From Legionella spiritensis (lineage in GTDB: Bacteria > Pseudomonadota > Gammaproteobacteria > Legionellales > Legionellaceae), in contig NZ_LT906457.1 of NCBI RefSeq assembly GCF_900186965.1, positions 186,001-250,000 of the forward strand: a stretch of DNA of 64,000 nt, written 5' to 3'. The notes below the pieces were generated by a model. That model had not been told where the DNA came from. It was given only the letters and a program-made list of their open reading frames with translations, and did no database searches. Position numbers and translations under genes: made by a program. This document shows, piece after piece, positions 31,317 to 57,308 of the stretch; positions within the stretch are counted from its first letter, which is position 1, and every line of letters starts with the position of its first letter.

Positions 31317-31613
31317 ATGTTGGTATTAACTAGAAGAATTGGCGAGTCAGTGGTTATTGGTGAAGATGTGTATTGCACTATTGTTGGTTATCGTGATGGC
31401 GAGATTCGTCTTGCTTTTGATGCACCTAAGTCATTGCCTATTCACCGTGATGAAATTCAACGTCGTATCTATCGCGAGCGTCAGAACGATAATTGGTTTT
31501 ATGACAGAGGCGCTGAGAAAGAAAGCATTGTCGACCGGCTGATTAATAAATTTAAGCAAGGTCATTGGTCAACTGAGCCTAAACTTCATTCTCAGGAGCA
31601 GCCCTATGCTTGA
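31317..31613 (+). CDS. lvrC: LvrC/CsrT, CsrA-family RNA-binding regulator of the ICE
   Basis: A 98-residue CsrA paralogue. Residues 1-55 follow the CsrA fold, with the RNA-contact residues Leu4, Arg6, Arg7 and Arg44 conserved (MLVLTRRIGE, PIHRDEIQRRI). The C-terminal 40 residues are an extension not found in housekeeping CsrA. CsrA-like proteins of this class (CsrT) are known on Legionella ICEs and act on mRNA, probably of the element itself. GAAGGAGATAA gives a strong ribosome-binding site. The 3' end overlaps trbB by 8 bp, placing it in the transfer operon. Confidence 0.92.
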   Translation: MLVLTRRIGESVVIGEDVYCTIVGYRDGEIRLAFDAPKSLPIHRDEIQRRIYRERQNDNWFYDRGAEKESIVDRLINKFKQGHWSTEPKLHSQEQPYA

Positions 31614-32571: not shown

Positions 32572-32582
32572 GGAGAATATGA

Positions 32583-32960
32583 ATGAACCAGATAAATTCA
32601 ATTGATTATAAAAAAATATTGCTGATGGGGTTTGTCGTCTTATTTTTACTTTTTATCACTCAGCCGGCATTAGCTTCATCAACCGGTGGCGGCCTACCAT
32701 TTGATTCCTGGCTGACGAAAATTCAGAAATCTATTACAGGTCCTTTTGCTTTTAGTGCTGCCATCATCGGATTAGTTGCTGCTGGTGCAACTTTGATTTT
32801 TGGTGGGGATATGAATGGTTTTATGAGAACCCTCATTTTCTTCGTGCTGGTCCTTTCATTTTTAGTAGCTGCTCAAAACACCATGACCGCCATCACCGGC
32901 AAGGGTGCTGAAATCTCAAAGCCCGAGATTGAAAAGGCGAATGCGGAGGGTAGGTCATGA
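32583..32960 (+). CDS. trbC: TrbC, VirB2-type (probably cyclic) prepilin
   Basis: A 125-residue pilin precursor. A long leader ends near ALA-S (residue 31/32), then comes STGGGLPFDSWLTKI, a first hydrophobic helix, GGDMNGFMRTL, a second helix and GKG-AEIS at 106-112. In RP4 TrbC, TraF removes an AEIA tetrapeptide after Gly114 and joins that Gly to Ser37, giving a 78-residue circular pilin. Here the equivalent product would run Ser32 to Gly108 (77 residues). A TraF homologue is encoded at 43318. The last 17 residues would be discarded. The gene overlaps trbD by 4 bp. Confidence 0.93.
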   Translation: MNQINSIDYKKILLMGFVVLFLLFITQPALASSTGGGLPFDSWLTKIQKSITGPFAFSAAIIGLVAAGATLIFGGDMNGFMRTLIFFVLVLSFLVAAQNTMTAITGKGAEISKPEIEKANAEGRS

Positions 32961-33256
32961 GCCTTCGTACGATTCCGATTCGTCAATGTGGAAACCGTCC
33001 TGGCCTTTTTATGGGTGGGGATCGTGAGCTTGTTATGTTTTCGGGATTGTTGTCAGCCATTTTGGTTTTTGCGGCTCAGGATTGGTTAGCAGCCATCGTT
33101 GGTATTGCAATGTGGTTTTTATCACTGAAAGCACTGCGTTTAATGGCAAAAGCCGATCCTTACATGAGGCCAATCTATCTGAAACAAAGACGCTATCAGA
33201 ATTATTATGCGCCCCGCTCAACCCCTTTCAGGGATAACAAAAGAGGTTATCAATGA
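32957..33256 (+). CDS. trbD: TrbD, VirB3-type membrane protein
   Basis: A 99-residue inner-membrane component with a VirB3-type start (LRTIPIRQCGNRPGLFMGGDREL) and two adjacent hydrophobic segments (~residues 28-60), then a basic tail (RPIYLKQRRYQNYYAPRS). VirB3 proteins associate with the VirB4 ATPase and are needed for pilus biogenesis. It overlaps trbC and trbE by 4 bp each, as in RP4 Tra2. Confidence 0.92.
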   Translation: MSLRTIPIRQCGNRPGLFMGGDRELVMFSGLLSAILVFAAQDWLAAIVGIAMWFLSLKALRLMAKADPYMRPIYLKQRRYQNYYAPRSTPFRDNKRGYQ

Positions 33257-35790
33257 TTGTATTTATTACCTTCTTACTGTCGATAACAGGGCTTATTTTT
33301 TTAAGTTTCCTGTTTTATCAGACAAGACTTAAAAGCCAGCAAAACCATTTAAAACTGCATCGAAGCTCAAAAGCAGGGTTGGTTGATTTACTGAATTATG
33401 CCTCGGTGGTGGATGATGGTGTGATTGTCGGTAAAAATGGCTCACTCATGGCAGCCTGGCTTTATCGGGGTGAAGATAATGCCAATACTACGGATGAAGC
33501 GCGTGAAATGGTGTCCTTTCGAATCAATCAGGCATTGTCAGCAATGGGCAGTGGCTGGATGGTCCATGTGGATGCTATCAGACGGGCGGCCCCCGGATAT
33601 AGTGAGCGTGACCATTCTTATTTTCCTGATGACATTTCAAAAGCCGTTGATGAAGAAAGAAGGCAGCTTTTTGAAGAAATCGGCGCTTTATATGAAGGCT
33701 ATTTCGTCATTACCTTAACCTGGTATCCACCTGTTCTGGCGCAAAAACGCTTTGTAGAATTAATGTTTGATGATAGCAACGAGCGATTAAGCCAGAAAGC
33801 AAAGACAGCTCAATTAATTGAAGAGTTTGAGCAGTCTTGCCGCAATTTTGAATCACGATTAGGTTCGGCCCTTCACCTAGAAAGACTTGAATCTGAAAAG
33901 GTTGTTGATGATCAAGGTCATGTTGTTACTCAGGATAATTTTCTAAGACATATTCAGTATTGTGTGACAGGCCTTAATCATCCAGTCAATCTACCTAAAA
34001 ACCCAATTTACCTTGATGCCCTGATAGGTGCTCAGGAGCTTGCTTCAGGTATCACGCCAAAAATAGGCCGCAAGTTCATTCAATGTGTGGCGATTGAAGG
34101 TTTTCCATTGGAGTCTTATCCGGGCATTTTAACAGCGTTGACCCAACTACCGGTTGAATATCGCTGGAACTCCCGTTTTATATTCATGGATAACCATGAA
34201 GCCGTGGCGCATTTCACCAAGTTTCGTAAAAAATGGAAACAGAAAGTCCGAGGATTTTTCGACCAGATATTTAATACCAGTTCGGGTGTCGTCGATGAAG
34301 ATGCATTGAGCATGGTCAATGATGCTCAGTCAGCCATTGCCGAAACGAATTCCGGCATGGTCGGACAAGGTTATTATACATCAGTCGTTGTGTTGATGGA
34401 TGAGGATCGCGCTTTAGTTGAAAAAGCAGCTCTCTATATTGAGAAAAACATTAACGCGCTTGGATTTACCGCCAGAACAGAAACGATTAATACCATGGAT
34501 GCCTTTATGGGCAGCTTACCTGGTCATGGTGTTGAAAATATCAGACGGCCTTTAATCAACACCATGAATCTTGCTGATTTACTACCGACTTCTAGCATCT
34601 GGACCGGTGAAAACAAAGCACCCTGTCCATTGTTTCCACCCAGCTCCCCTCCATTGATGCATTGTGTTACCAGTGGTAATGCGCCTTTTCGTTTAAACCT
34701 TCATGTCAGAGATTTAGGTCATGGCATCATGTTTGGTCCTACTCGTTCTGGTAAATCCACTCACCTTGGTTTAATCGCTTTATCCTGGCGCCGTTATAAA
34801 GATGCTCGGATTTATTCTTTTGACAAAGGTATGTCAATGTATCCAACCTGCAAGGCAACGGGTGGGGAGCACTATACCATTGCGGATAAAGATTCCCGAC
34901 TGTCTTTTGCCCCTTTACAGTTTTTATCAACCAAAGCAGACCGTGCCTGGGCGATGGAATGGATTGATACCATTCTTGCTTTGAATGGCTTAAATACCAC
35001 GCCAGCCCAACGCAATGAGATCGGCCATGCCATTATCAGCATGCATAAAAGCGGTTCCAAAACCTTATCTGACTTTGTCATGACCATTCAGGATGAAGAA
35101 ATCCGGGAAACCCTAAAACAATACACCATTGATGGGTTAATGGGGCACCTACTGGATGCGGAAAGCGATGGTCTTGGCCTGTCTTCATTCATGACCTTTG
35201 AAATTGAGCACTTAATGGGGTTGGGTGAAAAGTTTGCTCTGCCTGTTTTGCTATATCTGTTTCGACGTATTGAAACTTCACTTGATGACAGACCAACTTT
35301 AATCCTGCTGGATGAAGCCTGGCTAATGCTCGCCCATCCTGTCTTTAAAAACAAAATCGCGGAATGGCTCGATTCAATGGCCAAGAAAAACTGTGTGGTA
35401 TTTATGGCAACGCAACATTTATCCCATGCGGCGGGCTCAGGCATTTTAGATATCATCGTTGAATCAACTGCCAGCAAAATCTTTTTACCAAATCTCTACG
35501 CAAGAGATCCAGAAACACGGGGCATTTACGAGCGCATGGGTTTAAACCCACGTCAAATTGACATTATCGCCTCAGCTCAACCTAAACGGGATTACTACTA
35601 TGTCAGTGAAAAAGGCCAACGCCTATATCAATTGGCATTAGGCCCACTGGCACTGGCCTTTGTCGGTGCCACTGATCCTGATTCCATTGAACACATGAAA
35701 CAGCTTGAGCAGAAATATGGTGTGCAATGGGTGTCTTATTGGCTTAAAGAAAAAGGAATTGATTTCAAACAATATGGAGAAGCAGCATGA
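33253..35790 (+). CDS. trbE: TrbE, VirB4-type ATPase
   Basis: This 845-residue ATPase is the largest energy component of the secretion channel. An N-terminal transmembrane helix (residues ~1-22) is followed by the CagE/TrbE/VirB N-terminal domain and a C-terminal RecA-like domain. Walker A GPTRSGKST lies near residue 495 and Walker B LILLDEAWL near 690. A conserved FMATQHLSHA segment follows. Length matches RP4 TrbE (852). It overlaps both neighbours by 4 bp. Confidence 0.95.
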   Translation: MIVFITFLLSITGLIFLSFLFYQTRLKSQQNHLKLHRSSKAGLVDLLNYASVVDDGVIVGKNGSLMAAWLYRGEDNANTTDEAREMVSFRINQALSAMGSGWMVHVDAIRRAAPGYSERDHSYFPDDISKAVDEERRQLFEEIGALYEGYFVITLTWYPPVLAQKRFVELMFDDSNERLSQKAKTAQLIEEFEQSCRNFESRLGSALHLERLESEKVVDDQGHVVTQDNFLRHIQYCVTGLNHPVNLPKNPIYLDALIGAQELASGITPKIGRKFIQCVAIEGFPLESYPGILTALTQLPVEYRWNSRFIFMDNHEAVAHFTKFRKKWKQKVRGFFDQIFNTSSGVVDEDALSMVNDAQSAIAETNSGMVGQGYYTSVVVLMDEDRALVEKAALYIEKNINALGFTARTETINTMDAFMGSLPGHGVENIRRPLINTMNLADLLPTSSIWTGENKAPCPLFPPSSPPLMHCVTSGNAPFRLNLHVRDLGHGIMFGPTRSGKSTHLGLIALSWRRYKDARIYSFDKGMSMYPTCKATGGEHYTIADKDSRLSFAPLQFLSTKADRAWAMEWIDTILALNGLNTTPAQRNEIGHAIISMHKSGSKTLSDFVMTIQDEEIRETLKQYTIDGLMGHLLDAESDGLGLSSFMTFEIEHLMGLGEKFALPVLLYLFRRIETSLDDRPTLILLDEAWLMLAHPVFKNKIAEWLDSMAKKNCVVFMATQHLSHAAGSGILDIIVESTASKIFLPNLYARDPETRGIYERMGLNPRQIDIIASAQPKRDYYYVSEKGQRLYQLALGPLALAFVGATDPDSIEHMKQLEQKYGVQWVSYWLKEKGIDFKQYGEAA

Positions 35791-36530
35791 ATAAGCTCAA
35801 AGAATGGTTTAATAAAACAAATCCAGATAGGCAAAAGATTCCTCTAACCGATAACCCTTATCTCAATGCCAAACGTGCCTGGAATGTCCATACTGCAGGT
35901 CTAATGAAGTCCTTACAAATATGGCAGTTCGTGGGATTAAGCAGTCTGTTAATTACCCTTGCTTGTGTTGGTGGGTTGATATCGATTGGCGCGCAAAGCA
36001 AATTTATTCCTTTGGTGTTTCAACAGGATGCGAACGGCAACACCTTATCAGTGACCCGTGCTGATAAAGTAGGCGAAGCAAGTATTGATGATTATCGCGC
36101 CGCAGCCGCACATTTTATTGAAAATATCCGCATGGTCAGTGCTGATGTTGAGTTACAAAAGAAAGCCGTCTTTCAGGTGTATTCCTACCTAAATCAAAAC
36201 GATGCGGCATTATCAAAAGTCCAAGAATTTTATAATGATAAGCAACACGCCAACCCTTTTGAAAGAGCAACCCATGAAATTGTGAATATTGAAATCCGCT
36301 CTGTGCTTCAAGAGTCGGAAAACACCTGGCAGGTTGACTGGATTGAAACAGTCCGCAATCACGATGGCACTATTAAAGACAAACCAGCGGTGATGAAAGC
36401 CATGGTTACGCTCTATCAGGATAATGCGCTGAATGATGCATCGAGCGATACGATTCTGAAAAATCCTCACTTGATATATGTCCGCGACTTTAACTGGTCT
36501 TATGACTTAAAGCATGGAGAAACCGCATGA
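35787..36530 (+). CDS. trbF: TrbF, VirB8-type channel protein
   Basis: A 247-residue bitopic inner-membrane protein: cytoplasmic N-terminus with NPYLNAKRAWNVHTAGLM, a transmembrane helix at ~47-70, and a periplasmic NTF2-like VirB8 domain (ENTWQVDWIETVRNHDG). VirB8 nucleates assembly of the secretion complex. It overlaps trbE and trbG by 4 bp. Confidence 0.93.
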   Translation: MNKLKEWFNKTNPDRQKIPLTDNPYLNAKRAWNVHTAGLMKSLQIWQFVGLSSLLITLACVGGLISIGAQSKFIPLVFQQDANGNTLSVTRADKVGEASIDDYRAAAAHFIENIRMVSADVELQKKAVFQVYSYLNQNDAALSKVQEFYNDKQHANPFERATHEIVNIEIRSVLQESENTWQVDWIETVRNHDGTIKDKPAVMKAMVTLYQDNALNDASSDTILKNPHLIYVRDFNWSYDLKHGETA

Positions 36531-37402
36531 AAAAAATAATCCTCACCATTAGTCTACTGCTGCCATTATCTGTTTTTGCTTTTGATAAAAGCGACATAGA
36601 CCAGCGCTACTTTTCCAAAAGCTTGCCCAGACTATCAACTCAAGAACGACAAGCATTAAATATTGCCAGAAAATGGCAGAAAGGCGACCAAACAAGCAAG
36701 CCCTTTCATTCATCAGATGGTTCGGTTCAGTTTGTTTATGGCTCTGGTCAAATCAGTATCGTCTGTGCCCCATTGCAGGTATGTGATATTGCATTACAGC
36801 CAGGTGAACAGTTTAACGGGATGAATGTCGGTGACCCACGTTTTATGGTTGAACCATCAATAACAGGTGCAGGAGCAAGCCAGCAAATACATATGATTGT
36901 CAAGCCTCGGGATGTTGGTCTTGATTCATCTTTAGTCGTGACTACCGACAGACGGACCTATCATTTTCGCTTAAAGTCAGACCGATATGATTTTATGCCT
37001 TATGTCTCTTTTATTTATCCTGATGAAGCTAAAGCAAAATGGCGCAGGATACAGCACATTCAGGCAGAAAGACGTAAAGCCAATACATTCCCTGAAACCA
37101 ATGAATACTTAGGCAATCTCAACTTCAATTACCGGATTCAGGGCAATGCTCGTTTTAAACCGGTTCGAGTCTATAACAACGGCATCAAAACGATTATCGA
37201 AATGCCGCGTGAAATGTCACATAACGAAGCACCTGCGCTTTTAGTTTTTAGAAAACGAGGTTTATTTCAAAAATCAGAAAAAGTCATGGTCAATTATCGT
37301 CTGCAAGGCTGTCGTTACATTGTCGACAACGTCTTTGACAAAGCAGTTTTGGTTATAGGCAGCGGCTCTACCCAAGAACAAATTACCATTACGAGGTGCT
37401 AA
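36527..37402 (+). CDS. trbG: TrbG, VirB9-type outer-membrane complex protein
   Basis: A 291-residue periplasmic protein with a signal peptide (cleavage near VFA-F). The N-terminal VirB9 domain includes FVYGSGQISIVCAPLQVCDIAL, and the C-terminal domain includes LNFNYRIQGNARFKPVRVYNN, the segment that packs with VirB7/VirB10 in the core complex. It has Cys pairs that may form disulfides with the following lipoprotein. The stop is 2 bp before the lipoprotein gene start. Confidence 0.93.
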   Translation: MKKIILTISLLLPLSVFAFDKSDIDQRYFSKSLPRLSTQERQALNIARKWQKGDQTSKPFHSSDGSVQFVYGSGQISIVCAPLQVCDIALQPGEQFNGMNVGDPRFMVEPSITGAGASQQIHMIVKPRDVGLDSSLVVTTDRRTYHFRLKSDRYDFMPYVSFIYPDEAKAKWRRIQHIQAERRKANTFPETNEYLGNLNFNYRIQGNARFKPVRVYNNGIKTIIEMPREMSHNEAPALLVFRKRGLFQKSEKVMVNYRLQGCRYIVDNVFDKAVLVIGSGSTQEQITITRC

Positions 37403-37404
37403 GC

Positions 37405-37815
37405 ATGAAAAGAATAAGCGTTTTAATACTGGCAATGTTTTTGTCGAGCTGTACCACCATGCGTTATGGCAATTTTACACAAGCCTCACCATCGAAGGAT
37501 AGTTATCTGGCTAAAGACGCCGTATCTCAATTAACAAGAGTTTATCCACCAGCCAGAAATACCTTTTGTATCTCTCAAAAAATCTGTGACCGCTTCGGCA
37601 TTAACTTGATTCATGAGATGCGCAAAAAAGGTTACGGCATTGTTGAAAACGTCTGTCCAAGAAACAGGGCCAACTTTTTCTATGTGGTTGATGAGACAAG
37701 GCCCAATAGCCTTTATCGCGTCAGTATCTTTGTTGGCGCTCAGGTCTTAAGCCGAGCCTATGCCAAAACCAAGGGCAAACTTGCACCTGTCAGTCCATGG
37801 TCACATAAGGAATAA
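37405..37815 (+). CDS. trbH: TrbH-like lipoprotein (VirB7 position)
   Basis: A 136-residue lipoprotein in the TrbH position. The ATG at 37405 is chosen over an in-frame GTG at 37396 because GAGG lies 8 bases before it and it gives a clean signal peptide with lipobox (FLSSC, Cys18). The mature part contains CISQKICDRFG and ENVCPRNRANF, so several Cys are available for disulfides. TrbH-type lipoproteins support the outer-membrane core complex together with TrbG and TrbI. TrbI starts 4 bp downstream. Confidence 0.85.
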   Translation: MKRISVLILAMFLSSCTTMRYGNFTQASPSKDSYLAKDAVSQLTRVYPPARNTFCISQKICDRFGINLIHEMRKKGYGIVENVCPRNRANFFYVVDETRPNSLYRVSIFVGAQVLSRAYAKTKGKLAPVSPWSHKE

Positions 37816-37819
37816 GCAT

Positions 37820-39061
37820 ATGAATAAAAATTATGATTACTTATCACCGGATACCTCACCACAAAAACTTCAGACATCGGGTGTCAAACGGGTCAATAAT
37901 ATGCCCTTATTTATTGCGATTGGTATTTTAACCATTTTTGTCGTGCTGATTGCTTTGGTTGCCCAAAAACGAGCACATGCGCAGAACCAAGTTTCTGAGC
38001 CGGTAAAGCTGAAATCATCGAAAAAAAATACCATGAGTCTGGCTAATGACGTTGTGAGTCATTATCAGTCAGGAATGATAAGGCCTCCAACACAATCTAC
38101 GGTGAAAGAAGAATCACCTTCAATGCCACTGCCCAAAGAACAAAATCAGGCTTCAAAACCGGACATGCCAATTCAGGATGTACCCGATAGTGAAATTGAA
38201 CGTATCCGTCAGGACAAAACTCAGGCTTTTGAAGAAGCTGTGAAAGCCAAAACCACCGTGATGGTTGATGGTACGCAATTGCACCCTAATGAGAATCAAA
38301 AAAATCATAATGCTTCTGTTAACATTGATGTGGCCAATACCTTCAAAGCACATCTTCAACGGCTTCAAAGCATACAAAATGCCAGACCCGCACTACAAAC
38401 ATTAGGTGGTGAGGAAAATGAAAACCGCTGGCATTTAAACTCAAGATTAGAAAGCCCGAATAGCCGGTATGAACTGAGAGCTGGTGGTGTGATTCCGGGC
38501 GTCATGGTCAGCGGTATTTCATCAGAGCTACCTGGCCAGATTATCGGGCAAGTGTCTCAGAATGTTTATGATACGGCTACTGGTCGACATCTGTTAATAC
38601 CTCAAGGTACCAAGCTTATTGGTGTTTATTCTAATGAAGTTGGTTTTGGCCAGAACTCAGTTTTAGTGGCGTGGCAACGTCTTGTTTATCCTGATGGCAA
38701 AGCACTTGATATCGGTTCGATGCCCGGAGCTGATAGTGCAGGTATGGCTGGGTTCAGAGATCAAGTTGATCATCACTATGCCAAGATTTATGGCTCAGCC
38801 CTTTTAATGTCGGCCATCGTTGGTGGGATCACTTATAGCCAGAGCCTCAATCAGAACAGTCAAGTTGGCTATAACCAGCCAACGGCCGGCAATGTATTGA
38901 GTCAGGCATTGGGACAACAATTGGGTGAAGTGACCTCTCAACTGGTGTCTAAAAATCTCAATGTATCACCCACGGTTAATGTCAGACCCGGCTATCGTTT
39001 CAATGTCATTGTCGTCAAAGACTTAACCTTTAAAAAACCTTTTCGGCAATTTGCTTATTAA
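37820..39061 (+). CDS. trbI: TrbI, VirB10-type scaffold protein
   Basis: This 413-residue protein spans both membranes of the secretion channel. The ATG at 37820 has TAAGGAATAAG upstream and is preferred over a frame extending to 37760. A cytoplasmic N-terminus is followed by a transmembrane helix (~32-50), a Pro/Gln-rich periplasmic linker, and the VirB10 beta-barrel domain (LRAGGVIPGVMVSGISSELPGQIIG; TGRHLLIPQGTKLIG), with a helical antenna region near residues 325-345. Length is usual for TrbI. Confidence 0.94.
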   Translation: MNKNYDYLSPDTSPQKLQTSGVKRVNNMPLFIAIGILTIFVVLIALVAQKRAHAQNQVSEPVKLKSSKKNTMSLANDVVSHYQSGMIRPPTQSTVKEESPSMPLPKEQNQASKPDMPIQDVPDSEIERIRQDKTQAFEEAVKAKTTVMVDGTQLHPNENQKNHNASVNIDVANTFKAHLQRLQSIQNARPALQTLGGEENENRWHLNSRLESPNSRYELRAGGVIPGVMVSGISSELPGQIIGQVSQNVYDTATGRHLLIPQGTKLIGVYSNEVGFGQNSVLVAWQRLVYPDGKALDIGSMPGADSAGMAGFRDQVDHHYAKIYGSALLMSAIVGGITYSQSLNQNSQVGYNQPTAGNVLSQALGQQLGEVTSQLVSKNLNVSPTVNVRPGYRFNVIVVKDLTFKKPFRQFAY

Positions 39062-39075
39062 ACGGAGGAAAGCCA

Positions 39076-39816
39076 ATGAAATTAAGATTGATTTTTTTAT
39101 TGTTGTGGTCAACCAATGTTCTATCCAGTGGTGCGCCTGTGTTTGACTTTGCCAACTGGCTGGAAAACGGCAAGGTTATTATAAACCAAGTCAGTCAGTA
39201 TAAGACCCAATTGGATCAATACCGGAATCAATTGAGCCAATACAACACCATGTTACAAAACACCAAATCGCTGACGTCATTTCAATGGGATAATGCCGAC
39301 AGCATCATTAATAACCTGCTCGACACCACCAATACCATTGATTATTACAAACAAGAAGCCGGTAGCATGCAAGCTTATCTGGACCGCTTCCAAAGCCAGG
39401 AATATTACCAGAAAATCCCCTGCTTCAATGGTCATGGTAAATGCTCAGCCGAAGAACTTAAGAAAATAAGCCAGAATAAAATGGCCGCATCCGTTGCCCA
39501 GAAACGGGCAAATGATGCCATGCTCAAAGGCATTGATAAGCAACAGCAAAACCTGAAAAAAGATTCTGAAAAACTACGAAACCTGCAAGCCCATGCGCAA
39601 ACTGCTGGTGGACAGAAACAGGCCCTTCAGGCTGCATCTCAACTTGCCAGCAATCAGGCCCATCAATTGCTGCAGATTCGTGGCTTATTGGTCGCACAGC
39701 AAAATGCCCAGGCCGTTAAAGATGCCGCCGAAACAAATAAACAAGCCATACAGGATGCCGGAGATGAACGATTTCGCTCTGGGTCATTCCATAAAAGTTC
39801 CGGTACAAAATGGTAA
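39076..39816 (+). CDS. trbJ: TrbJ, VirB5-type pilus-associated protein
   Basis: A 246-residue secreted protein with a signal peptide (cleavage near SSG-A). It is mostly helical with two long coiled-coil stretches (QVSQYKTQLDQYRNQLSQYN near residues 36-56, and ~135-215). VirB5/TrbJ proteins sit at the pilus tip and help mating contact. The C-terminus ends HKSSGTKW, nearly the same as the SKSSGIKW end of the next gene product. AACGGAGGAAAGCC is a strong ribosome-binding site. Confidence 0.92.
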   Translation: MKLRLIFLLLWSTNVLSSGAPVFDFANWLENGKVIINQVSQYKTQLDQYRNQLSQYNTMLQNTKSLTSFQWDNADSIINNLLDTTNTIDYYKQEAGSMQAYLDRFQSQEYYQKIPCFNGHGKCSAEELKKISQNKMAASVAQKRANDAMLKGIDKQQQNLKKDSEKLRNLQAHAQTAGGQKQALQAASQLASNQAHQLLQIRGLLVAQQNAQAVKDAAETNKQAIQDAGDERFRSGSFHKSSGTKW

Positions 39817-39832
39817 TACAAGGAGAATAACC

Positions 39833-40045
39833 ATGAGAATTTTAAGCTTATTAATCGCATTTTCAGTCTGTTTCCTGTCAGGTTGTGACAACGCAGAAAC
39901 AAAAGCACGCAAGAAAGCTCAACATCTTGCCTCACTTACCTGTGATAGCTCTAAAAAAGATCGCTCAAAAGAAGAACTTCAGGTCATAGCAGACGCTTGT
40001 TTCAAACAAGGCGGTTATTCCAAAAGCTCCGGTATCAAATGGTAA
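39833..40045 (+). CDS. trbK: TrbK-like entry-exclusion lipoprotein
   Basis: A 70-residue lipoprotein with AAGGAGAATAACC before its ATG; a longer overlapping frame upstream is not coding. The signal peptide ends in a lipobox (FLSGC, Cys18). The mature part is charged, with two Cys (LTCDSS and DACFKQ). In RP4 the equivalent position is TrbK, the lipoprotein that blocks redundant mating. It ends SKSSGIKW, matching the tail of TrbJ. Exclusion function is inferred from position and type. Confidence 0.85.
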   Translation: MRILSLLIAFSVCFLSGCDNAETKARKKAQHLASLTCDSSKKDRSKEELQVIADACFKQGGYSKSSGIKW

Positions 40046-40049
40046 TATT

Positions 40050-41444
40050 ATGAAAAAACAGACATTCACTTTTTTATTCGTATTCTTGTTAATTGGCTTT
40101 TCAGTCAATGCTCATGCCGATGGGGCTGGCATCGACAGCCGGGATTTGCTCGATAATATCCTCTATCGATTTTCCAATAATGCCTCGATGTGGAGTCATA
40201 CTATTCTGAGCTATGCTCGATACCTTTTCTGGTCTTTAGCCATGATCAGTATGGTATGGACTTATGGCATGATGGCCTTAAGACGGGCTGATATTCAGGA
40301 GTTTCTCGCTGAAACCGTGCGTTTTTTGGTGGTCGTCGGCTTTTTCTATTGGCTTTTAGATAATGGACCTGCGATAGCCACCTCTATTATGGACTCCATG
40401 CGCAGGCTTGCGGCCAATGCATCTGGCATTGATGCAAAAGTATCCCCTTCCGATATTGTTGATGTGGGTTTTGATATCGTTTCAAAAGCCATTGATAACT
40501 CATCGGTCTGGTCACCAGCGGCAACGACGGTTGGGCTGATTGTTGCTGGAATCATTCTGATTGTTTTGGCCATGGTCAGTATCAATATGCTGATTATTTT
40601 AATTACCGGCTGGATATTAACTTATGGCGGCATCATTTTATTAGGCTTTGGCGGTGGTCGTTGGACTCAGGATATTGCCATCCAATATTACAAAACAGTG
40701 CTAGGTATTGCGCTTCAGGCTTTTGCCATGATTCTGATTATCGGTATCGGTAAGTCTTTTGTCGATCAGTACTATGCCGCTATGTCCAAAGACATTCTGT
40801 TAAAAGAAATGTTTGTCATGCTCGTGGTTGCTGTCGTCCTACTGGTCCTGATTAATAAAATTCCACCCATTCTGGCAAGTATTGTCTCGGGTGGCTCAGG
40901 CGGTGGTGGCGGTGGCCTTGGGTTAGGTGGTGCTTTGGGTGCAGCTGGCATTGCTGGCACTGCTCTGGCAGGAGCTGCCGGCGCTGCAAGTGCTCATAGT
41001 GCTGGGGGCCTTTCAGCCTTGAATGCTGCATTTAAAGCGGCTTCTCAAAGTATGGGGGTAGGTGATATTGGCGCTATGTCAGGCAATAGCTCAGGCCCTA
41101 AATCCGGTGGTCTAGCACAAGCCATGGGGCAGGCTTCTAAGTTTGCCGGTTCATTTGGTTCTCATCTTGCTTCTGGGGCGTTTGACGTTGCGCGTGAAAA
41201 AGCCGGCAGCATGAAAGCCTCATTTTCTGCCAAAACTTCCGATACAACGGGCGGTAAGATTGCCGAGGCCATCAATCAACGTGTTTCTTCAAGCTCGGAT
41301 TCTGCTACTTCCAATCAATCATCTGACTCTCAAAATGTCACCTCGATGGGCGCACCAGAAGGCAGTTTTAGCTCTGGTAGTGAGGAAACCACAGACGAAG
41401 TCAGCCAGTTTGTGAATCAAAAAGCATCGGGAGATAACCAATGA
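40050..41444 (+). CDS. trbL: TrbL, VirB6-type polytopic channel protein
   Basis: A 464-residue protein with a signal-like first helix (cleavage near AHA-D) and five or six transmembrane helices between ~45 and 275. A Gly-rich stretch follows (GGSGGGGGGLGLGG), then a long Ala/Ser/Gly-rich polar C-terminal tail of ~180 residues. VirB6/TrbL forms part of the inner-membrane channel for DNA. It overlaps traG by 4 bp. Confidence 0.93.
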   Translation: MKKQTFTFLFVFLLIGFSVNAHADGAGIDSRDLLDNILYRFSNNASMWSHTILSYARYLFWSLAMISMVWTYGMMALRRADIQEFLAETVRFLVVVGFFYWLLDNGPAIATSIMDSMRRLAANASGIDAKVSPSDIVDVGFDIVSKAIDNSSVWSPAATTVGLIVAGIILIVLAMVSINMLIILITGWILTYGGIILLGFGGGRWTQDIAIQYYKTVLGIALQAFAMILIIGIGKSFVDQYYAAMSKDILLKEMFVMLVVAVVLLVLINKIPPILASIVSGGSGGGGGGLGLGGALGAAGIAGTALAGAAGAASAHSAGGLSALNAAFKAASQSMGVGDIGAMSGNSSGPKSGGLAQAMGQASKFAGSFGSHLASGAFDVAREKAGSMKASFSAKTSDTTGGKIAEAINQRVSSSSDSATSNQSSDSQNVTSMGAPEGSFSSGSEETTDEVSQFVNQKASGDNQ

Positions 41445-43321
41445 AACCAAACCGCTCCATTGGTCCACAGGTAAGGCAAAAGCATGTTAATAAAGCCAGT
41501 AAGTATCTCATTATGTTAGTCATGCTTGCATTTTTAATCAGCATGCAAATTGGCACTCAATACGCGGCTTTTAAACTGTATCATGCTGATACCTTAAACT
41601 TTTCATTTACTCAATTCTATTGGCCATGGCAGGCGATTCTCTGGAATCTGCAATATCATCAATATTTTCCTGATATTTTTAATGCCGCCTTTGGTTTATC
41701 AGTTATGAGCGGTTGCCTTTTTTTAATGGGCATAATATTTCTCAACAAGCAGTTAAAACAAGAAAACGTCAGTGAATATCTCCATGGTTCTGCCCGATGG
41801 GCCAATATGACTGATTTAAAAGACGCCGGCATTATTGATAACGAAGAAGGCGTTTATGTCGGTGCCATTGAAGACGAAAAAGGTAATGTTCACTATTTAC
41901 GCCATAACGGACCCGAACATATATTAACCTATGCCCCAACCCGCTCGGGTAAAGGGGTCGGTTTGGTAATTCCTACCCTATTATCCTGGAAAAAATCTTG
42001 TGTGATTACCGATCTAAAAGGTGAGCTATGGGCCTTGACCGCAGGCTGGCGGCAAAAACACGGCCATAACAAAGTCATTCGCTTTGAGCCGGCAACCCTT
42101 AAAGGCTCTGCTCGCTGGAATCCATTGGATGAAATCAGGGTTGGTACTGAGTATGAAGTTGGCGATGTACAAAACCTGGCAACACTCGTTGTTGATCCTG
42201 ATGGCAAAGGACTCGAAACCCACTGGCAAAAAACCTCTCAAGCCTTGTTAGTTGGTTTTATTCTGCATGCCATTTATAAACTTCAAAATCAGGGTGAGCC
42301 GGCTACATTTCCCAATATCGATAGAATGCTGGTTGACCCCAATACCAATATCGCAGATTTACTCATTGAAATGACTCAATTCCCCCATGTGGATGGCAAA
42401 ACCCATTCCGTTATTAGTGCTTCAGCCCGAGATATGATTGACCGGCCTGAAGAAGAAGCCGGCTCTGTGTTATCAACCTTAAAGTCTTATCTGGCGTTAT
42501 ATCGTGATCCTGTCGTTGCCCATAATGTTTCAGCATCTGATTTCTGTATCAAAGATTTAATGCATCACACCAACCCTGTCAGCCTCTATATCGTCACCCA
42601 ACCCAATGACAAAGCAAGGCTGCAACCATTGGTTCGAGTCATGCTAAATATGGTCGTCAGACTATTAGCCGATAAAATGGATTTTGAACGCGTAGATGAT
42701 GGACAAGGACATTATTCTGTCAAAACTAAAAAGACATACAAGCATCGTTTATTATGCATGATTGATGAGTTTCCTAGCCTTGGGAAACTCGATATCTTAC
42801 AGGAGTCATTAGCTTTTGTTGCTGGTTACGGCCTGAAGTTTTACTTAATTTGTCAAGATATCAATCAGCTTAAAAGCCGAGAGCGAGGCTATGGACCTGA
42901 TGAAACCATTACCTCCAATTGCCACATTCAAAACGCCTACCCACCCAACCGAATTGAAACCGCCGAACATCTGTCAAAACTCACAGGACAAACTACGATC
43001 GTTAAAGAGCACATCACCACCAGCGGCAAGCGTGTATCCACTTTTTTAAATCAGATTTCTAAAACCAAACAGGAAGTCTCAAGACCGTTATTAACCATTG
43101 ACGAATGTCAGCGCATGCCCGGACCTAAAAAAGATGCCAATGGATTAATTACCGAGGCTGGTGACATGGTTATTTATGTTGCCGGTTTTCCTGCTATTTA
43201 CGGCAAGCAGCCTCTCTATTTTAAAGATTCAGTGTTTATTGCCAGAGCATCAGTTGAAGCGCCAACACAATCAGATATTTTACGTGCCCGTTTAACTAAA
43301 GATGAGGAAATCAGGTTATGA
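41441..43321 (+). CDS. traG: TraG, VirD4-type coupling protein
   Basis: This 626-residue inner-membrane ATPase brings the relaxosome to the secretion channel. Two N-terminal transmembrane helices (~24-46 and ~82-102) precede the nucleotide-binding domain, with Walker A APTRSGKGVG near residue 165 and Walker B CMIDEFPSLGKLD near 440. Length is close to RP4 TraG (635). It follows trbL directly with a 4-bp overlap and overlaps traF by 4 bp, so secretion and coupling functions are in one operon. Confidence 0.95.
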   Translation: MKPNRSIGPQVRQKHVNKASKYLIMLVMLAFLISMQIGTQYAAFKLYHADTLNFSFTQFYWPWQAILWNLQYHQYFPDIFNAAFGLSVMSGCLFLMGIIFLNKQLKQENVSEYLHGSARWANMTDLKDAGIIDNEEGVYVGAIEDEKGNVHYLRHNGPEHILTYAPTRSGKGVGLVIPTLLSWKKSCVITDLKGELWALTAGWRQKHGHNKVIRFEPATLKGSARWNPLDEIRVGTEYEVGDVQNLATLVVDPDGKGLETHWQKTSQALLVGFILHAIYKLQNQGEPATFPNIDRMLVDPNTNIADLLIEMTQFPHVDGKTHSVISASARDMIDRPEEEAGSVLSTLKSYLALYRDPVVAHNVSASDFCIKDLMHHTNPVSLYIVTQPNDKARLQPLVRVMLNMVVRLLADKMDFERVDDGQGHYSVKTKKTYKHRLLCMIDEFPSLGKLDILQESLAFVAGYGLKFYLICQDINQLKSRERGYGPDETITSNCHIQNAYPPNRIETAEHLSKLTGQTTIVKEHITTSGKRVSTFLNQISKTKQEVSRPLLTIDECQRMPGPKKDANGLITEAGDMVIYVAGFPAIYGKQPLYFKDSVFIARASVEAPTQSDILRARLTKDEEIRL

Positions 43322-43869
43322 AACAACTAACCATCTGGGCAGCGGTTTTTATGTTAAGCATCTTTGTCTTGAGCGTTCTTCTGGTTTTTCTAGGATTTCG
43401 GATTAACACGACTGATTCTATACCAATAGGTGTCTATCGAATGACAGCATATAAAAACCTCAAAAATGCTTATGTTATTTTTTGTCCTGATGATCGACCT
43501 GTTTTCCAGCAAGCCTTAGTTCGAGGATATATTAACAGTGGTTTTTGCCCTGATAGCTATGGATATTTAATGAAAAAAGTCGTAGCAACAACAGGTGATA
43601 ACATAGCGGTCAACAGTAAGGGCGTCTTTGTCAATGACAGGCTTATTCCCTATTCAAAACCTCAGCTTAAAGATGCTCTCAATCGCTCATTACCTCAATG
43701 GCAAGCAAAAAATTATCAATTAAATGACGATGAAGTTATGGCCATGACCGATCAAAGCCAGTGGTCTTTTGATGGTCGTTATTATGGCCCTATTAAATCA
43801 GGACAAATAAAAGGAATGCTCACACCCATATGGGTCTACCCAAAACAGGAGAAAATACATGAATCATAA
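43318..43869 (+). CDS. traF: TraF-like S26 signal peptidase (pilin cyclase)
   Basis: A 183-residue membrane-anchored serine peptidase of the S26/LepB family. One N-terminal transmembrane helix (~7-29) is followed by TTDSIPIGVYRM, with the nucleophile Ser in the S-I-P-I-G context, and later LMKKVVATTGDNIAV with the catalytic Lys. RP4 TraF processes and circularises the TrbC pilin, and TrbC here keeps the matching GKG-AEIS site. It overlaps traG (4 bp) and the next small gene (11 bp). Confidence 0.9.
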   Translation: MKQLTIWAAVFMLSIFVLSVLLVFLGFRINTTDSIPIGVYRMTAYKNLKNAYVIFCPDDRPVFQQALVRGYINSGFCPDSYGYLMKKVVATTGDNIAVNSKGVFVNDRLIPYSKPQLKDALNRSLPQWQAKNYQLNDDEVMAMTDQSQWSFDGRYYGPIKSGQIKGMLTPIWVYPKQEKIHES

Positions 43870-53073: not shown

Positions 53074-54954
53074 TTAAAAATAAATTTTATTGTTACGATT
53101 TTTTCTCCCTTTCTTTAATCCAGAAATTTTCCGTCGCACATGGTTATCAAGTTGGAATCTTTGCCGCTCCAGCTGATCATGTGCATCAGTCGGCAATAGC
53201 ACTTTACTTCTTCCGGTGAACTGAACCATATCGAGTTGGGACAGACTTCGCAGGCTGTTTTGACCTTCGGCTGGCGGGCCTTGTCTAAAGCTGATAGCGT
53301 TGGACTTCGGTCTGCAAGGGTTTCCTTTTCCATGGGCTGTTCCAGCAACTTCATTGCTTCTTGCAGTTCTTCTTCCATCATCAGATCCGTATCGTCTTGA
53401 TTGCTCATTTTGTTCCTTCTGTTGTGAAGTTATTTTTTGGCGCTGAGATTCCATCTCAGAATCAGCGAAAGTGATTGGGATTTTGCTCTGAACGGTTAAT
53501 TGAATAATGATCTTTTTGAATAGTGGTGAACCACTTACCTTAATGCAGTTGCCGTATCTTTGGAGGGCCATCTCAAGGGCTTTTTTCAATACGGCGATTG
53601 AAGCACCTTTGGAAATTTTAATTTCTTTGCCGGTATTCCTAATGACAGCCTTACCTGTCTTATAAATCTCTGTTCCTTCTTTGGTAATGGAATCAACCTG
53701 ACCTATATTGGCGGAGGAGATATCCGGTGATGGGCCTGATAAAGTGTAATTGGTTTTATTTTTCCGATTGCGATATCGCATGGCGGTTAAAGCGTCTTTA
53801 TCTCCTTGTTGTGCTTTGTACCGCAACCAGTCAGCCCAGGTATTTTTTTTATGTAAATCAATCAAAATGCTTCGCTCTTTGGAGTAATTTTGGCGGATTT
53901 GTTCAATATCACTTAACAGAGTTTTACTGATTTGCTTGTAGAGATATTTCTTTTGAATCCTTGGGGCTTTTAGTAGTTTTAGCGCAGTTCGTTTCATTCT
54001 GCCGCGCTTCTTGGCCTTATCAATTAATATGGTCTTAGCTTCACGAAGCCTCTTAAGTTTTTCGGAAAGAATTGTTTTGCCGTGTTCTCTTTCGTGGAGG
54101 TAACGTGCATAAATTTCTTTGCTGAGCACTTGCTTATTAAGTGGTTCATATCGATAGATATTTTGCCCAGCTATGTGAGCAGAGTATGGCGATGGTATAA
54201 ATGCCCCTAACTGATACTCAAGGTTCTTTTTAGAAAATCCTCGTGAAACAGAACTGGCTTTAATAGTAAGACCATCCTTATTACAAAAAACAAATCCATT
54301 AGCTTTGACTCGAATTTCAAGATCATGCACTGCGAGAACTTTATGAAACTCGTCCCAGTTTTCTGCTGACTCCAAGTTCTCCCAGCAATAGCGTTTCATC
54401 CAGTTAATCAAACTCTCAATACCTGAATGATGCTCCATATCATCGGCAAGATTCTCTGAACGAGATTTACGTGTTTGATGGTTTATGAGCTCAAGACCAT
54501 ACTCAGCTTCCAATGTCGATGCCACTTCAGAAAAAGCTCTATAGGCTCTATATGGCTCAATCATGTTAAAAGATTTTGGATGAATCTTATTAACCGCAAC
54601 ATGAATATGTAAATTGTCGGTATCGTGATGAATGGCACTGATTCTTTGATGATCTCTGAATCCTATACTTGATACAACTCGTTCTTCGATAGCCTTCAAT
54701 ATGTCTTCAGGTGGGTTCTCACCTGGTGCAAACGATATGAGTAAGTGGTAGGTTTTATCTCCTTTTGCTCTTTGATTTATCGCTTGTGTTGCCAATACCT
54801 CCTGAATGGCCCATGTGGGGTCGATACTGTTACAGTTTGATATCCTGATTTTGCCTACTCGTTCCTGCTTGTTTTGTTCATCAACTATATATTTCACCAA
54901 GCTTGAAAAGCTGCTAAGTCTTGCTGATTTCATGGGTATATGGCGAATAATCAT
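53074..54954 (-). CDS. traI: TraI, MOBP-type relaxase
   Basis: This 626-residue protein nicks oriT and stays bound to the 5' end. The three relaxase motifs align with RP4 TraI at the same positions: Tyr22 (LVKYIVDEQ), Ser74 (YHLLISFAPGE), and the His triad region HHDTDNLHIHV with His116 and His118. A middle region with SENLADDMEHHSGIESL also matches RP4. The C-terminal ~120 residues are low-complexity and basic, and overlap a second gene in another frame. It overlaps traJ by 4 bp. It has no primase or helicase domain. Confidence 0.94.
   Translation of the reverse strand: MIIRHIPMKSARLSSFSSLVKYIVDEQNKQERVGKIRISNCNSIDPTWAIQEVLATQAINQRAKGDKTYHLLISFAPGENPPEDILKAIEERVVSSIGFRDHQRISAIHHDTDNLHIHVAVNKIHPKSFNMIEPYRAYRAFSEVASTLEAEYGLELINHQTRKSRSENLADDMEHHSGIESLINWMKRYCWENLESAENWDEFHKVLAVHDLEIRVKANGFVFCNKDGLTIKASSVSRGFSKKNLEYQLGAFIPSPYSAHIAGQNIYRYEPLNKQVLSKEIYARYLHEREHGKTILSEKLKRLREAKTILIDKAKKRGRMKRTALKLLKAPRIQKKYLYKQISKTLLSDIEQIRQNYSKERSILIDLHKKNTWADWLRYKAQQGDKDALTAMRYRNRKNKTNYTLSGPSPDISSANIGQVDSITKEGTEIYKTGKAVIRNTGKEIKISKGASIAVLKKALEMALQRYGNCIKVSGSPLFKKIIIQLTVQSKIPITFADSEMESQRQKITSQQKEQNEQSRRYGSDDGRRTARSNEVAGTAHGKGNPCRPKSNAISFRQGPPAEGQNSLRSLSQLDMVQFTGRSKVLLPTDAHDQLERQRFQLDNHVRRKISGLKKGRKNRNNKIYF
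53115..53408 (-). CDS. TraH-like acidic protein nested inside traI
   Basis: A 97-residue frame wholly inside the 3' end of traI, on the same strand but in another frame. AGAAGGA lies 6 bases before its ATG. The N-terminus is acidic (DDTDLMMEEELQEAMKLLEQ) and the C-terminal half has a Cys-rich part (KTACEVCPNSIWF, VKCYCRLMH) that looks like a real folded domain, whereas the overlapping TraI tail is low-complexity. In RP4 the acidic relaxosome protein TraH is also encoded entirely within traI. I infer the same arrangement here; sequence similarity to RP4 TraH could not be checked. Confidence 0.7.
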   Translation of the reverse strand: MSNQDDTDLMMEEELQEAMKLLEQPMEKETLADRSPTLSALDKARQPKVKTACEVCPNSIWFSSPEEVKCYCRLMHMISWSGKDSNLITMCDGKFLD

Positions 54955-55304
54955 AATTTTTTCACCACCTCAAACATGGCTTCCTGCGTTGTTTGAATTC
55001 GACCCAGTAATGCTTTTACCATACGGTGATCAAAATGTGCGACGCGCCTATCCTGGGTAAGCCAAAGTTTAAACAGTCCTCCTAGCCTTCCCATATCAGC
55101 ATTTATTTTGGATAGCTGAAGAATATATTCCTTATCAATGGCACTTTGTATTGGGTGGCCCTGGCCGACTCGACGCAGGTATTCCGCAATAGAAAGCCCA
55201 GCCTGAGCTGCATTCGATTTAATTGAGATTTCTTCATCTGGAAGAACGGGAACACGAAGGTGGCGACCGTGTTTTCTGGTAGGTTTTTTATTCTGATTGT
55301 CCAT
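54951..55304 (-). CDS. traJ: TraJ-like oriT recognition protein
   Basis: A 117-residue basic protein with a ribbon-helix-helix-type N-terminus (HGRHLRVPVLPDEEISIKSNAAQAGLSIAEYLRRVGQG) and a helical C-terminus. RP4 TraJ binds the inverted repeat next to nic and loads TraI. Here the oriT lies 120-190 bp upstream of its start, and the gene overlaps traI by 4 bp. AGGT-rich DNA before the start includes AAGAGGTCAGC as ribosome-binding site. Confidence 0.9.
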   Translation of the reverse strand: MDNQNKKPTRKHGRHLRVPVLPDEEISIKSNAAQAGLSIAEYLRRVGQGHPIQSAIDKEYILQLSKINADMGRLGGLFKLWLTQDRRVAHFDHRMVKALLGRIQTTQEAMFEVVKKL

Positions 55305-55390
55305 AAGGATGCTGACCTCTTAATAAGTGGTTATGCAATCCTTTAGGTTCTAATTTGTTGTTTTCTTTTTGACCTCAAAAAGCAAGATAT

Positions 55391-55475
55391 GCGTTGAGCA
55401 CCGAAGGTGCGAATAAGGCTTGTGAAGTTTGGTGGCCAGCTTGCTGGTTAGCTAACTTCACCTATCTTGCCCAGA
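55391..55475 (+). other. oriT: oriT, RP4/IncP type, with nic site
   Basis: Three landmarks follow the order seen in RP4. First, GTTGAGCACCG-AAGGTGCGAATAAGG, a small hairpin matching the RP4 segment GTTGAGCACCGCCAGGTGCG. Second, an 8-bp perfect inverted repeat GTGAAGTT (55422-55429) / AACTTCAC (55454-55461), the TraJ-site counterpart. Third, CTTCACCTATCTTG-CCC, against RP4 CTTCACCTATCCTG-CCC. The predicted cut is between G55469 and C55470 on the plus strand. It lies between the divergent traJ and traK genes. The rest of the 422-bp gap (55305-55726) is AT-rich and must hold both promoters. Confidence 0.92.
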
Positions 55476-55726
55476 GTTCTAACGTTTCTTAAAGATATCA
55501 TAACAGGTTCTTTTTCTTCCCATCAAGGGTTTTCTGATGATATAGGTAGATAATGAACCAAAATAAATGTATAAAAACATAAATAGGAAATTGAAGAACA
55601 TCTGAAGGTAATAAAAGAGAACTAAAAGGACCACAAAGAACGCGAAAAAGAACATTTTGTTGTTAATAAGGAAAATTTCTAATAAGATGTATTAAGAGCG
55701 ATAAATCAAAAAATATATGGGATGAG

Positions 55727-56071
55727 ATGAATAGTTCACTCAGTGAGAGAATTGCAAAAAGACAAGCTAAAAAAAATGGCGCTAACAACTCCAAAAATAA
55801 AGTGGCTTTTCTTGCTCAAAAGAAAGACATCATTGGAGCGCTATCTGATGGCTGGTCAATGAAAGCAATTTGGGAGACATTAACTGAGGAAGGAAAAATT
55901 TCATTCACATACAAAACATTTCGCTTATATGTAGCACAGTTCATTCGTAATGATAAAAAGAATGAGCCGCAGGAGAAAACCAAGGAAGATACGAAGAAGA
56001 AAAGTAACGCCACAAATGAAATCAAGGGCTTTACTTATAATCCCATTCCTAACTTGGAGGAACTCTTGTAA
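55727..56071 (+). CDS. traK: TraK-like oriT-binding protein
   Basis: A 114-residue basic protein. The pattern KVAFLAQKKDIIGALSDGWS, then TYKTFRLYVAQFI, a Lys-rich linker and the end GFTYNPIPNLEELL match RP4 TraK, whose end is GFTFNPTPDKKDLL. TraK wraps oriT DNA and assists relaxosome assembly. It is transcribed away from oriT and its stop overlaps the traL start by one base. Confidence 0.9.
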   Translation: MNSSLSERIAKRQAKKNGANNSKNKVAFLAQKKDIIGALSDGWSMKAIWETLTEEGKISFTYKTFRLYVAQFIRNDKKNEPQEKTKEDTKKKSNATNEIKGFTYNPIPNLEELL

Positions 56072-56796
56072 TGGCCAAAATACATATTACGATGCAAGGC
56101 AAAGGCGGTGTCGGCAAATCCTTTGTGTCAGCAACAACCGCACAATATAAACACCATAAAGAACAAACACCACTTTGTATAGACACCGATCCCATTAACG
56201 CCACATTTCATGGTTTTAAAGCACTTAATGTTGAACGTCTTGATATTATGGAGGGAGATGAGATTAACCCTCGTCATTTTGACACATTGATTGAAAAAAT
56301 TGCTACATCAGATCAAGATATCATCATTGATAACGGAGCAAGCTCTTTTGTACCACTGTCACACTACATCATCAGCAACCAAGTACCGGCATTATTACAA
56401 GGCATGGGGCATGAACTGATTGTCCATTCAGTTATCACCGGCGGCCAGGCTTTATTCGATACCATTACTGGCTTTATTCACTTGGTGAATCAACTACCTG
56501 AAGATATCCGCTTCGTTGTATGGCTAAATCCGTATTGGGGAAGGATTGAACATGAGGGGAAGCCTTTTGAGCAATTGAAAGTCTATAAGGAGAATAAGGA
56601 TCGTGTGGCCGCACTCATTAATATCCCCGACTTAAAGGAAGAAACCTTTGGACGGGATCTCACAGATATGCTGCAACAAAAAATGACGTTTAATGAAGCC
56701 ATCAACTCCCCTGAGCGAAATATTATGACCAGGCAACGATTGAAGCTGATTCGAGATCAATTATTTGGCCAAATTGATAACGCCATGGTGATCTAA
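56071..56796 (+). CDS. traL: TraL, ParA-like ATPase of the transfer region
   Basis: A 241-residue protein, the same length as RP4 TraL. The N-terminal deviant Walker A motif MQGKGGVGKS (residues 8-17) marks the ParA/MinD class. A second signature is DQDIIIDNGASSF. RP4 TraL is encoded between traK and traM, as here; it is not essential in all hosts. The gene overlaps both neighbours by one base. Confidence 0.9.
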   Translation: MAKIHITMQGKGGVGKSFVSATTAQYKHHKEQTPLCIDTDPINATFHGFKALNVERLDIMEGDEINPRHFDTLIEKIATSDQDIIIDNGASSFVPLSHYIISNQVPALLQGMGHELIVHSVITGGQALFDTITGFIHLVNQLPEDIRFVVWLNPYWGRIEHEGKPFEQLKVYKENKDRVAALINIPDLKEETFGRDLTDMLQQKMTFNEAINSPERNIMTRQRLKLIRDQLFGQIDNAMVI

Positions 56797-57248: not shown

Positions 57249-57308
57249 ATGCATCCAATTGATATATTAATACAGTGGCTTGACGAGGATAAGCTAACAG
57301 GTGCGTAA
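57249..57308 (+). other. Short leader-like frame, possible gene remnant
   Basis: A 19-residue frame (MHPIDILIQWLDEDKLTGA) just after traM whose TAA overlaps the ATG of the next gene. The sequence resembles the first residues of pyridoxamine-phosphate-oxidase-type flavoproteins, so it may be a 5' remnant kept at an insertion boundary or a coupling leader. Evidence is weak. Confidence 0.25.

What the first reader, a model, noticed from the sequence alone, without database searches (positions are those of the whole stretch)
53115..53408. Overprinted traH-like gene inside the relaxase gene
A 97-residue frame with a strong ribosome-binding site lies wholly within the 3' end of traI in another frame. 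Its product looks structured (acidic N-terminus, four-Cys C-terminal part), while the overlapping TraI tail is low-complexity. RP4 also nests traH in traI. The Cys cluster suggests a metal-binding fold, which I do not know from RP4 TraH.
Basis: partly seen in the sequence, partly recalled or inferred. Interest (0 to 1): 0.7.

Follow-up and report, generated by a model that had tools for sequence, protein, structure and literature searches.

The report
Nested traH gene inside relaxase gene
A small gene hidden in another reading frame of a conjugation enzyme's gene is a true relative of the RP4 plasmid gene traH, and the same hidden gene turns up inside several quite different conjugation-enzyme genes.

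Summary
The 97-codon frame at 53115-53408(-) lies wholly inside traI (53074-54954, -) of an IncP-type conjugative island in a Legionella genome. It is a full-length homologue of RP4 TraH (43.6% identity over residues 1-96, E 2e-23). The Cys cluster is not a departure from RP4: RP4 TraH has the same five Cys, and four are kept in all 98 distinct TraH proteins compared. In the window's clade TraH is the constrained frame; TraI there is no more conserved than the unread third frame, yet almost free of stops. All 13 TraI genes found with a TraI query lacking this segment carry TraH.

The wider result: TraH profiles hit nested frames, in one phase wherever the host frame is intact, in other MOBP relaxase genes at other positions, in a MobQ relaxase and in two MobF relaxases. 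In two contexts, relatives without TraH at that place lack the stretch. traH may be an insertable nested gene. Likely role: acidic, probably zinc-binding relaxosome stabiliser.

The parts
53115..53408 (-). traH: 97 aa, acidic N-terminal half, C-terminal Cys cluster (C53, C56, C70, C72, C91)
53409..53426 (-). stretch with the Shine-Dalgarno-like site of traH (AGAAGGA, 5 nt before ATG), inside the traI reading frame
53074..54954 (-). traI: MOBP relaxase, 626 aa (Relaxase, TraI_middle, LPD7); no TraI-like_C match, which RP4 TraI has
54951..55304 (-). traJ (NikA-like; conjugal transfer regulator TraJ)
55305..55726 (.). traJ-traK intergenic region with an RP4-like nic stretch (CTTCACCTATCTTGCCC; RP4 has CTTCACCTATCCTGCCC), probable oriT
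   Evidence: the exact RP4 hexamer search found no window match; the one-base variant was read by eye
55727..56071 (+). traK-like (DUF5338)
   Evidence: gene order as
56071..56796 (+). traL-like P-loop ATPase
   Evidence: gene order as
41441..43321 (+). traG coupling protein, in the trb cluster and not downstream of traI as in RP4
43318..43869 (+). traF pilin peptidase
31606..41444 (+). trb mating-pair genes (TrbB, TrbE, TrbG, TrbL above their cut-offs; a TrbI-like protein below its cut-off)

Best explanation
The frame is traH, a genuine gene nested inside the relaxase gene of an IncP-type integrated conjugative element. Its product is an acidic protein of about 11 kDa that, by homology to RP4 TraH, joins TraI and TraJ at oriT and stabilises the relaxosome. 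Translation probably starts at an internal ribosome-binding site on the traJ-traI message, so TraH is made beside TraI from the same RNA (inferred). The C-terminal half probably folds around a metal, most likely zinc held by C53, C56, C72 and C91, and the acidic N-terminal half may dock on the basic TraI tail encoded by the same DNA (both inferred). Across the family traH looks like a ready-made gene inserted into linkers of relaxase genes (inferred). The relaxase reads through it in the one frame that can always be kept free of stops by synonymous choice; in the window's clade the relaxase peptide there looks like tolerated filler, while TraH is the selected product. Shown: homology, nesting, shared Cys, selection on the TraH frame, few stops in the TraI frame, recurrence at different places in different relaxase genes. 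Inferred: expression, metal, binding, function in this island, insertion as the route.
For: Full-length homology to annotated TraH of IncP plasmids. Same neighbours traK-oriT-traJ-traI. In 36 sequences of the window's clade, mean pairwise difference by TraI codon position 1, 2, 3 is 0.23, 0.16, 0.44 upstream, while in the overlap TraH positions 1, 2, 3 (TraI 2, 3, 1) show 0.13, 0.11, 0.35. 3 stops in the TraI frame in 33 distinct sequences, where shuffling each sequence's own synonymous codons gives 3.28 per sequence; median chance per sequence 0.007. 106 of 112 TraH places (duplicates included) wholly nested in the +2 frame. Four Cys kept in 98 of 98 distinct proteins. In the window's clade TraI stops 5-50 nt after traH in most members, in L053 and L054 inside it and in L057 4 nt before its end, while TraH stays intact. 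A paper passage says that RP4 TraH is acidic, encoded in a different frame within traI, and stabilises TraJ-TraI at oriT (PMC7314908, passages). Similar codon-position pattern in two pairs from other relaxase types.
Against: No expression data for this genome. No solved relative (only PDB match E 0.019, FAM166B), structure prediction off: the metal fold is unproven. In 35 IncP-like sequences the TraI frame is slightly more conserved than the third frame (0.48 against 0.45), and stop avoidance is weak per sequence (median chance 0.185), so TraI there is not plain filler. Stop avoidance is not independent across related sequences. Acid/base complementarity is largely imposed by the code: random stop-free encodings of the window TraH give a +2-frame pI of 9.8, sd 1.5, and both MobF cases break it. 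The MobF evidence is one Moraxella bovis plasmid type and one Acinetobacter frame with a composition-biased match. The TraH tree is too short (63 columns) and long-branched to count transfers.
Confidence: 0.86

Rival explanations
1. The frame is a chance open frame inside the TraI tail and is not a gene.
For: Length alone is unremarkable: P(open) = 0.10 under TraI codon usage. No Pfam, NCBIfam or PHROG family reached its cut-off or a strong E-value.
Against: Matches in 1474 plasmid records, annotated as traH in several; the TraH frame is the conserved one; invariant Cys; SD before the start.
Confidence: 0.01
2. De novo overprinting: traH arose once inside an ancestral relaxase gene, and its different positions come from later rearrangement of relaxase domains around it.
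For: Same relative phase wherever the host frame is intact, and many cases lie in MOBP relaxases that share LPD7. The phase is also what code constraints favour: 73 of 96 distinct TraH proteins contain a Met-[IMTNK] pair, which makes a stop unavoidable in the +1 frame.
Against: In L012 the TraH codons coincide with an extra stretch between Relaxase and TraI_middle that RP4, window and Yersinia TraI lack, and no TraH was found at the usual place. The MobF and MobQ hosts are other relaxase families. pIE321 TrwC lacks the stretch and has no TraH hit.
Confidence: 0.25
3. Reverse order: traH was a free gene downstream of traI, and TraI was extended into it by loss of its stop, with later capture of the TraI-like_C domain.
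For: In the window's clade and in Campylobacter the relaxase frame ends near the traH stop.
Against: In the IncP-like places the relaxase continues about 100 codons beyond traH, with a TraI-like_C domain where scanned, and in the NikB-like ones several hundred codons with LPD7. No free-standing traH was seen among the 112 places; one (L015) has a broken relaxase frame.
Confidence: 0.15
4. TraH acts as a redox or iron-sulphur sensor and not as a structural zinc protein.
For: Five Cys in 93 of 98 by pattern; C70 is absent in the IncI2 type.
Against: The invariant set is CxxC + C + C, typical of structural zinc sites (general knowledge); no direct test.
Confidence: 0.15

Closest known systems
TraH of RP4/RK2 and other IncP plasmids
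   Same: Homologous over the full length, nested in traI in the same phase, acidic, same five Cys, same neighbours
   Different: 97 aa against 119 aa (shorter N-terminal linker); the host TraI has no TraI-like_C match and ends 41 nt after traH; traG lies elsewhere in the island
Other relaxosome genes nested in relaxase genes (MobB in RSF1010 mobA, MbeB/MbeD in ColE1 mbeA; recalled, no call)
   Same: Accessory mobilisation gene read in another frame of the relaxase gene
   Different: Not compared by sequence here
Trb-1/Trb-2 (DT2/DT1) islands of Legionella pneumophila (PMC2859405, passages)
   Same: Islands with tra and trb operons; the window's genome also has two traI-traH copies
   Different: Identity with those islands was not tested
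F-type TraH, pIP501 TraH, Agrobacterium TraH (recalled families of the same name)
   Same: Name only
   Different: No Pfam or NCBIfam model of such a family matched the window protein at E <= 1

Membership tests
RP4-type TraH | sequence homology to annotated IncP TraH | tested here: met
   43.6% identity over residues 1-96, E 2e-23; alignment
RP4-type TraH | encoded in a different frame inside traI | tested here: met
RP4-type TraH | host gene is a TraI/MobA(P) relaxase next to traJ, oriT and traK | tested here: met
   NF041893 505 bits (cut-off 250), TraJ NF010451 178.5 bits (cut-off 134); DUF5338 TraK-like; nic-like stretch with one base different from RP4
RP4-type TraH | acidic protein | tested here: met
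   pI 4.64; RP4 TraH 4.38
RP4-type TraH | stabilises TraI-TraJ at oriT | not testable with these tools
   stated for RP4 in PMC7314908 (passage)
Zinc-binding (Cys4) protein | four conserved metal-ligand Cys | tested here: met
   C53, C56, C72, C91 invariant in the 28 rows of A3; pattern in 96 of 98, and the other 2 also keep the Cys, with CS in place of CD
Zinc-binding (Cys4) protein | bound metal or known zinc fold | tested here: inconclusive
   no significant PDB relative; structure prediction off
RSF1010 MobB / ColE1 MbeB type nested genes | sequence relation | not tested
   recalled only

The most novel reading that the evidence does not exclude
traH is an insertable nested gene: a small metal-binding relaxosome factor that has been inserted, ready-made and in one phase, into inter-domain linkers of different conjugative relaxase genes (MOBP at several positions, MobQ, MobF). 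The relaxase tolerates it because a +2 reading of any coding sequence can be kept open by synonymous choice, and an acidic nested protein pushes the host frame towards an Arg/Gly-rich basic peptide (each Asp/Glu codon reads NGA there: Arg, Gly or stop), giving the host a docking tail for its own guest. This would be a general way to build nested genes, distinct from de novo overprinting.
Probability: 0.5. Interest if true: 0.78.

Novelty: new member of a known kind. Interest (0 to 1): 0.55.

Why it matters
It shows a protein-coding nested gene in an island where one-gene-per-locus annotation would drop it. TraH-type nested frames lie in relaxase genes of IncP, IncI2, Campylobacter, Neisseria and Pseudomonas plasmids and of small MobQ plasmids, yet none of the 14 members scanned reached a Pfam or NCBIfam cut-off or a strong PHROG match (MobF and IncI2 members were not in that set). 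In L016 the gene table lists the nested gene and an LPD7 protein but no relaxase N-terminal part, and the plasmid is typed non-mobilizable (that table is known to be incomplete). If insertion is right, it gives a route to nested genes other than overprinting, and a conserved, little-tested relaxosome factor in many plasmids.

Tried and rejected
Rejected: chance ORF; F-type or other TraH families; ORF length as evidence by itself (P 0.10). Treated as chance: DUF6862 (window E 0.026; 3 of 14 members, best E 0.0057, window score below cut-off), other scattered Pfam, NCBIfam and PHROG matches of single members, PDB FAM166B (E 0.019). The TraH tree was not used to count transfers: 63 columns, long branches, 11 of 27 inner branches open. 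SD counts (112 of 112) are biased, because the start was chosen partly by its SD.

Rows dropped: L001 (same place as the window), L090 (the TraH frame runs on from a long upstream frame), L015 (broken relaxase frame) and L079 (start unclear) were left out of the 96- and 98-protein counts. The 36 window-clade and 35 IncP-like rows were picked by hand from the 112 places, which hold duplicates. The 44 rows of A2 and 28 of A3 are hand-picked. One search kept the best 80 of 216 confirmed stretches; two searches listed 60 of 1474 records each. Genome searches show TraH is sparse: 8 of 53 relatives, 4 of 274 and 4 of 369 in the class, 5 of 398 in the phylum.

Literature: ten searches, listings seen; passages seen in PMC7690428, PMC3614916, PMC7314908, PMC4981023, PMC8716806, PMC4175270, PMC2859405 and PMC3864950. 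In these I saw no report of TraH in MobQ or MobF relaxases or of a TraH Cys cluster; most subscription papers are not in the library. The primary RP4 papers were not seen. TraH of PMC8716806 and PMC7690428 is another protein (gonococcal island, F pilus).

Full report
What is there. The frame at 53115-53408(-) starts with ATG, ends with TAA, and lies wholly inside traI (53074-54954, -), its stop 41 nt before the end of traI. traI is a TraI/MobA(P) relaxase (NF041893, 505 bits, cut-off 250) with Relaxase, TraI_middle and LPD7 domains. Upstream are traJ, an intergenic stretch with a nic-like sequence one base from RP4's, and traK-like and traL-like genes. The window also holds trbB, trbE, trbG, trbL, traG, traF, a trbI-like gene below its cut-off and a mercury reductase: an IncP-type integrated conjugative element. 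The closest named loci (L030-L032, 91-93%) are Legionellaceae. The genome carries a second copy of traI-traH.

It is TraH. tblastn against 72,556 plasmid records finds 1474 with a match at E <= 0.01. RP4 itself (CP152305) matches over residues 1-96 at 43.6%, E 2e-23; its record does not annotate traH, but that of the IncP plasmid PB5 does at the same match. In 14 TraH proteins the invariant residues include C53, C56, P57, W61, C70, C72, C91, D92 and G93 (window numbering). With IncI2-, MobF- and NikB-like members added (28 rows), C53, C56, C72 and C91 remain invariant and C70 does not. Of 98 distinct proteins, 96 fit a four-Cys pattern ending CD/CE, and the other two (second Aeromonas copies) have the Cys with CS. 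Median pI is 4.47, range 4.05-6.57.

Which frame is selected. In 36 sequences of the window's clade, upstream traI varies mostly at TraI third positions (0.435). In the overlap, TraI third positions (TraH second) fall to 0.110 and TraH third positions (TraI first) carry the change (0.347). Pairwise aa identity is 0.80 for TraH, 0.59 for TraI and 0.60 for the unread third frame. In 35 IncP-like sequences the figures are 0.60, 0.48 and 0.45, so TraI may keep some constraint there. The TraI frame has few stops: 3 in 33 distinct clade sequences against 3.28 expected per sequence from shuffled own codons (median chance 0.007 per sequence), and 0 in 35 IncP-like against 1.90 per sequence (median chance 0.185). 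The sequences are related, so this is not an overall probability. In this clade TraI stops 5-50 nt after traH in most members, inside it in L053 and L054 and 4 nt before its end in L057; L028 from another Legionellaceae TraI also stops inside it. Other Legionella TraI genes (for example L017, L060, L061, L071) run about 295 nt beyond traH. The window TraI has no TraI-like_C match, RP4 TraI has; for the rest of the clade its loss is inferred from length.

The refuting case. Searching with the first 481 residues of TraI (TraH stretch excluded) found 12 TraI genes in 8 of 53 relatives and one further gene among 274 genomes of the class; all 13 carry a TraH-profile hit (14 of 14 loci, two being one gene).

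Beyond traI. Of 112 TraH places in the loci held (duplicates included), 106 are wholly nested in the +2 frame, in 3 the relaxase frame stops inside TraH, in 2 after its matched core, and 1 (L015) has a broken relaxase frame; in L090, counted as nested, the TraH frame is continuous with a long upstream frame. The places differ. In RP4 the TraH codons (514-633) lie between LPD7 and TraI-like_C. In E. coli pNORD58_7 (L012) they are codons 188-297, an extra stretch between Relaxase and TraI_middle that RP4, window and Yersinia TraI lack. In IncI2 (L014), L118, L115, L116 and the Pseudomonas type (L016) they precede LPD7. In Campylobacter they end a MobP1 relaxase. In two small plasmids (L009, L113, same relaxase) they follow the MobA_MobL domain of a MobQ relaxase (TraH E 3e-34). 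In Moraxella bovis (L112; 15 near-identical records) they are codons 313-395 of a MobF relaxase, between TrwC and helicase domains (E 7e-18). An Acinetobacter frame (L120, record typed MOBF, 40.8% identical to the Moraxella relaxase; not scanned for domains) has one too, with a weaker, composition-biased match (E 1e-10 and 2e-9) but the Cys in place. pIE321 TrwC, a MobF relaxase with no TraH hit, lacks about 150 residues at that place. The MobF TraH alone finds TraI-nested TraH at E 3e-10. Codon-position patterns in two further pairs (L014/L118, L016/L133) agree with selection on TraH; the MobQ and MobF cases could not be tested for selection.

Why one phase. In the +2 frame every stop needs a codon ending in T, which synonymous choice can avoid. 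In the +1 frame Met followed by I, M, T, N or K forces TGA, and 73 of 96 distinct TraH proteins contain such a pair. So the common phase need not mean one origin. Each Asp/Glu codon in TraH reads as NGA in the host frame (Arg, Gly or stop), so an acidic guest tends to give a basic host peptide: 96 of 98 host stretches have pI above 9. The exceptions are the two MobF cases, and random encodings show that much of this is imposed by the code. Whether TraH docks on this tail is a guess.

Mechanism. For RP4 a paper states that TraH stabilises TraJ-TraI at oriT (PMC7314908, passages). I infer the same for the window gene, with internal initiation on the traJ-traI message and a zinc-held C-terminal half. 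Neither is tested here.

Limits. No structure model, no expression data, an unresolved TraH tree, hand-picked alignment rows, and a literature library without most subscription papers.

Noticed in passing
L005:2896-3960 and L065:3881-4951: Aeromonas traI genes with two TraH frames in tandem, both nested; in L005 a 645-nt repeat (88.7% identical) carries the unit. The second copies have CS in place of CD.
   Followed up: partly
L016:1944-5774: Pseudomonas plasmid whose gene table lists the nested traH and an LPD7 protein from 3744 but nothing for the relaxase N-terminal part of the 1276-codon frame; typed non-mobilizable.
   Followed up: no
L117:3731-4000 (approx.): Yersinia massiliensis TraI shows repeats of the TraH-core-coding stretch after traH, seen in the TraI frame.
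   Followed up: no
L015:2830-3402: Pseudomonas syringae plasmid where the TraH-like frame continues from upstream and the relaxase frame is broken.
   Followed up: no
window 41441-43869: traG and traF sit in the trb cluster, away from traI, unlike RP4.
   Followed up: partly
window 26322-27716: Mercury(II) reductase gene in the same window.
   Followed up: no
window 47267-53025 and 57308-60460: Blocks of cargo-like genes on either side of the traI-traL cluster that look by eye like transferases, acetyltransferases and kinases; no family search was made on them.
   Followed up: no
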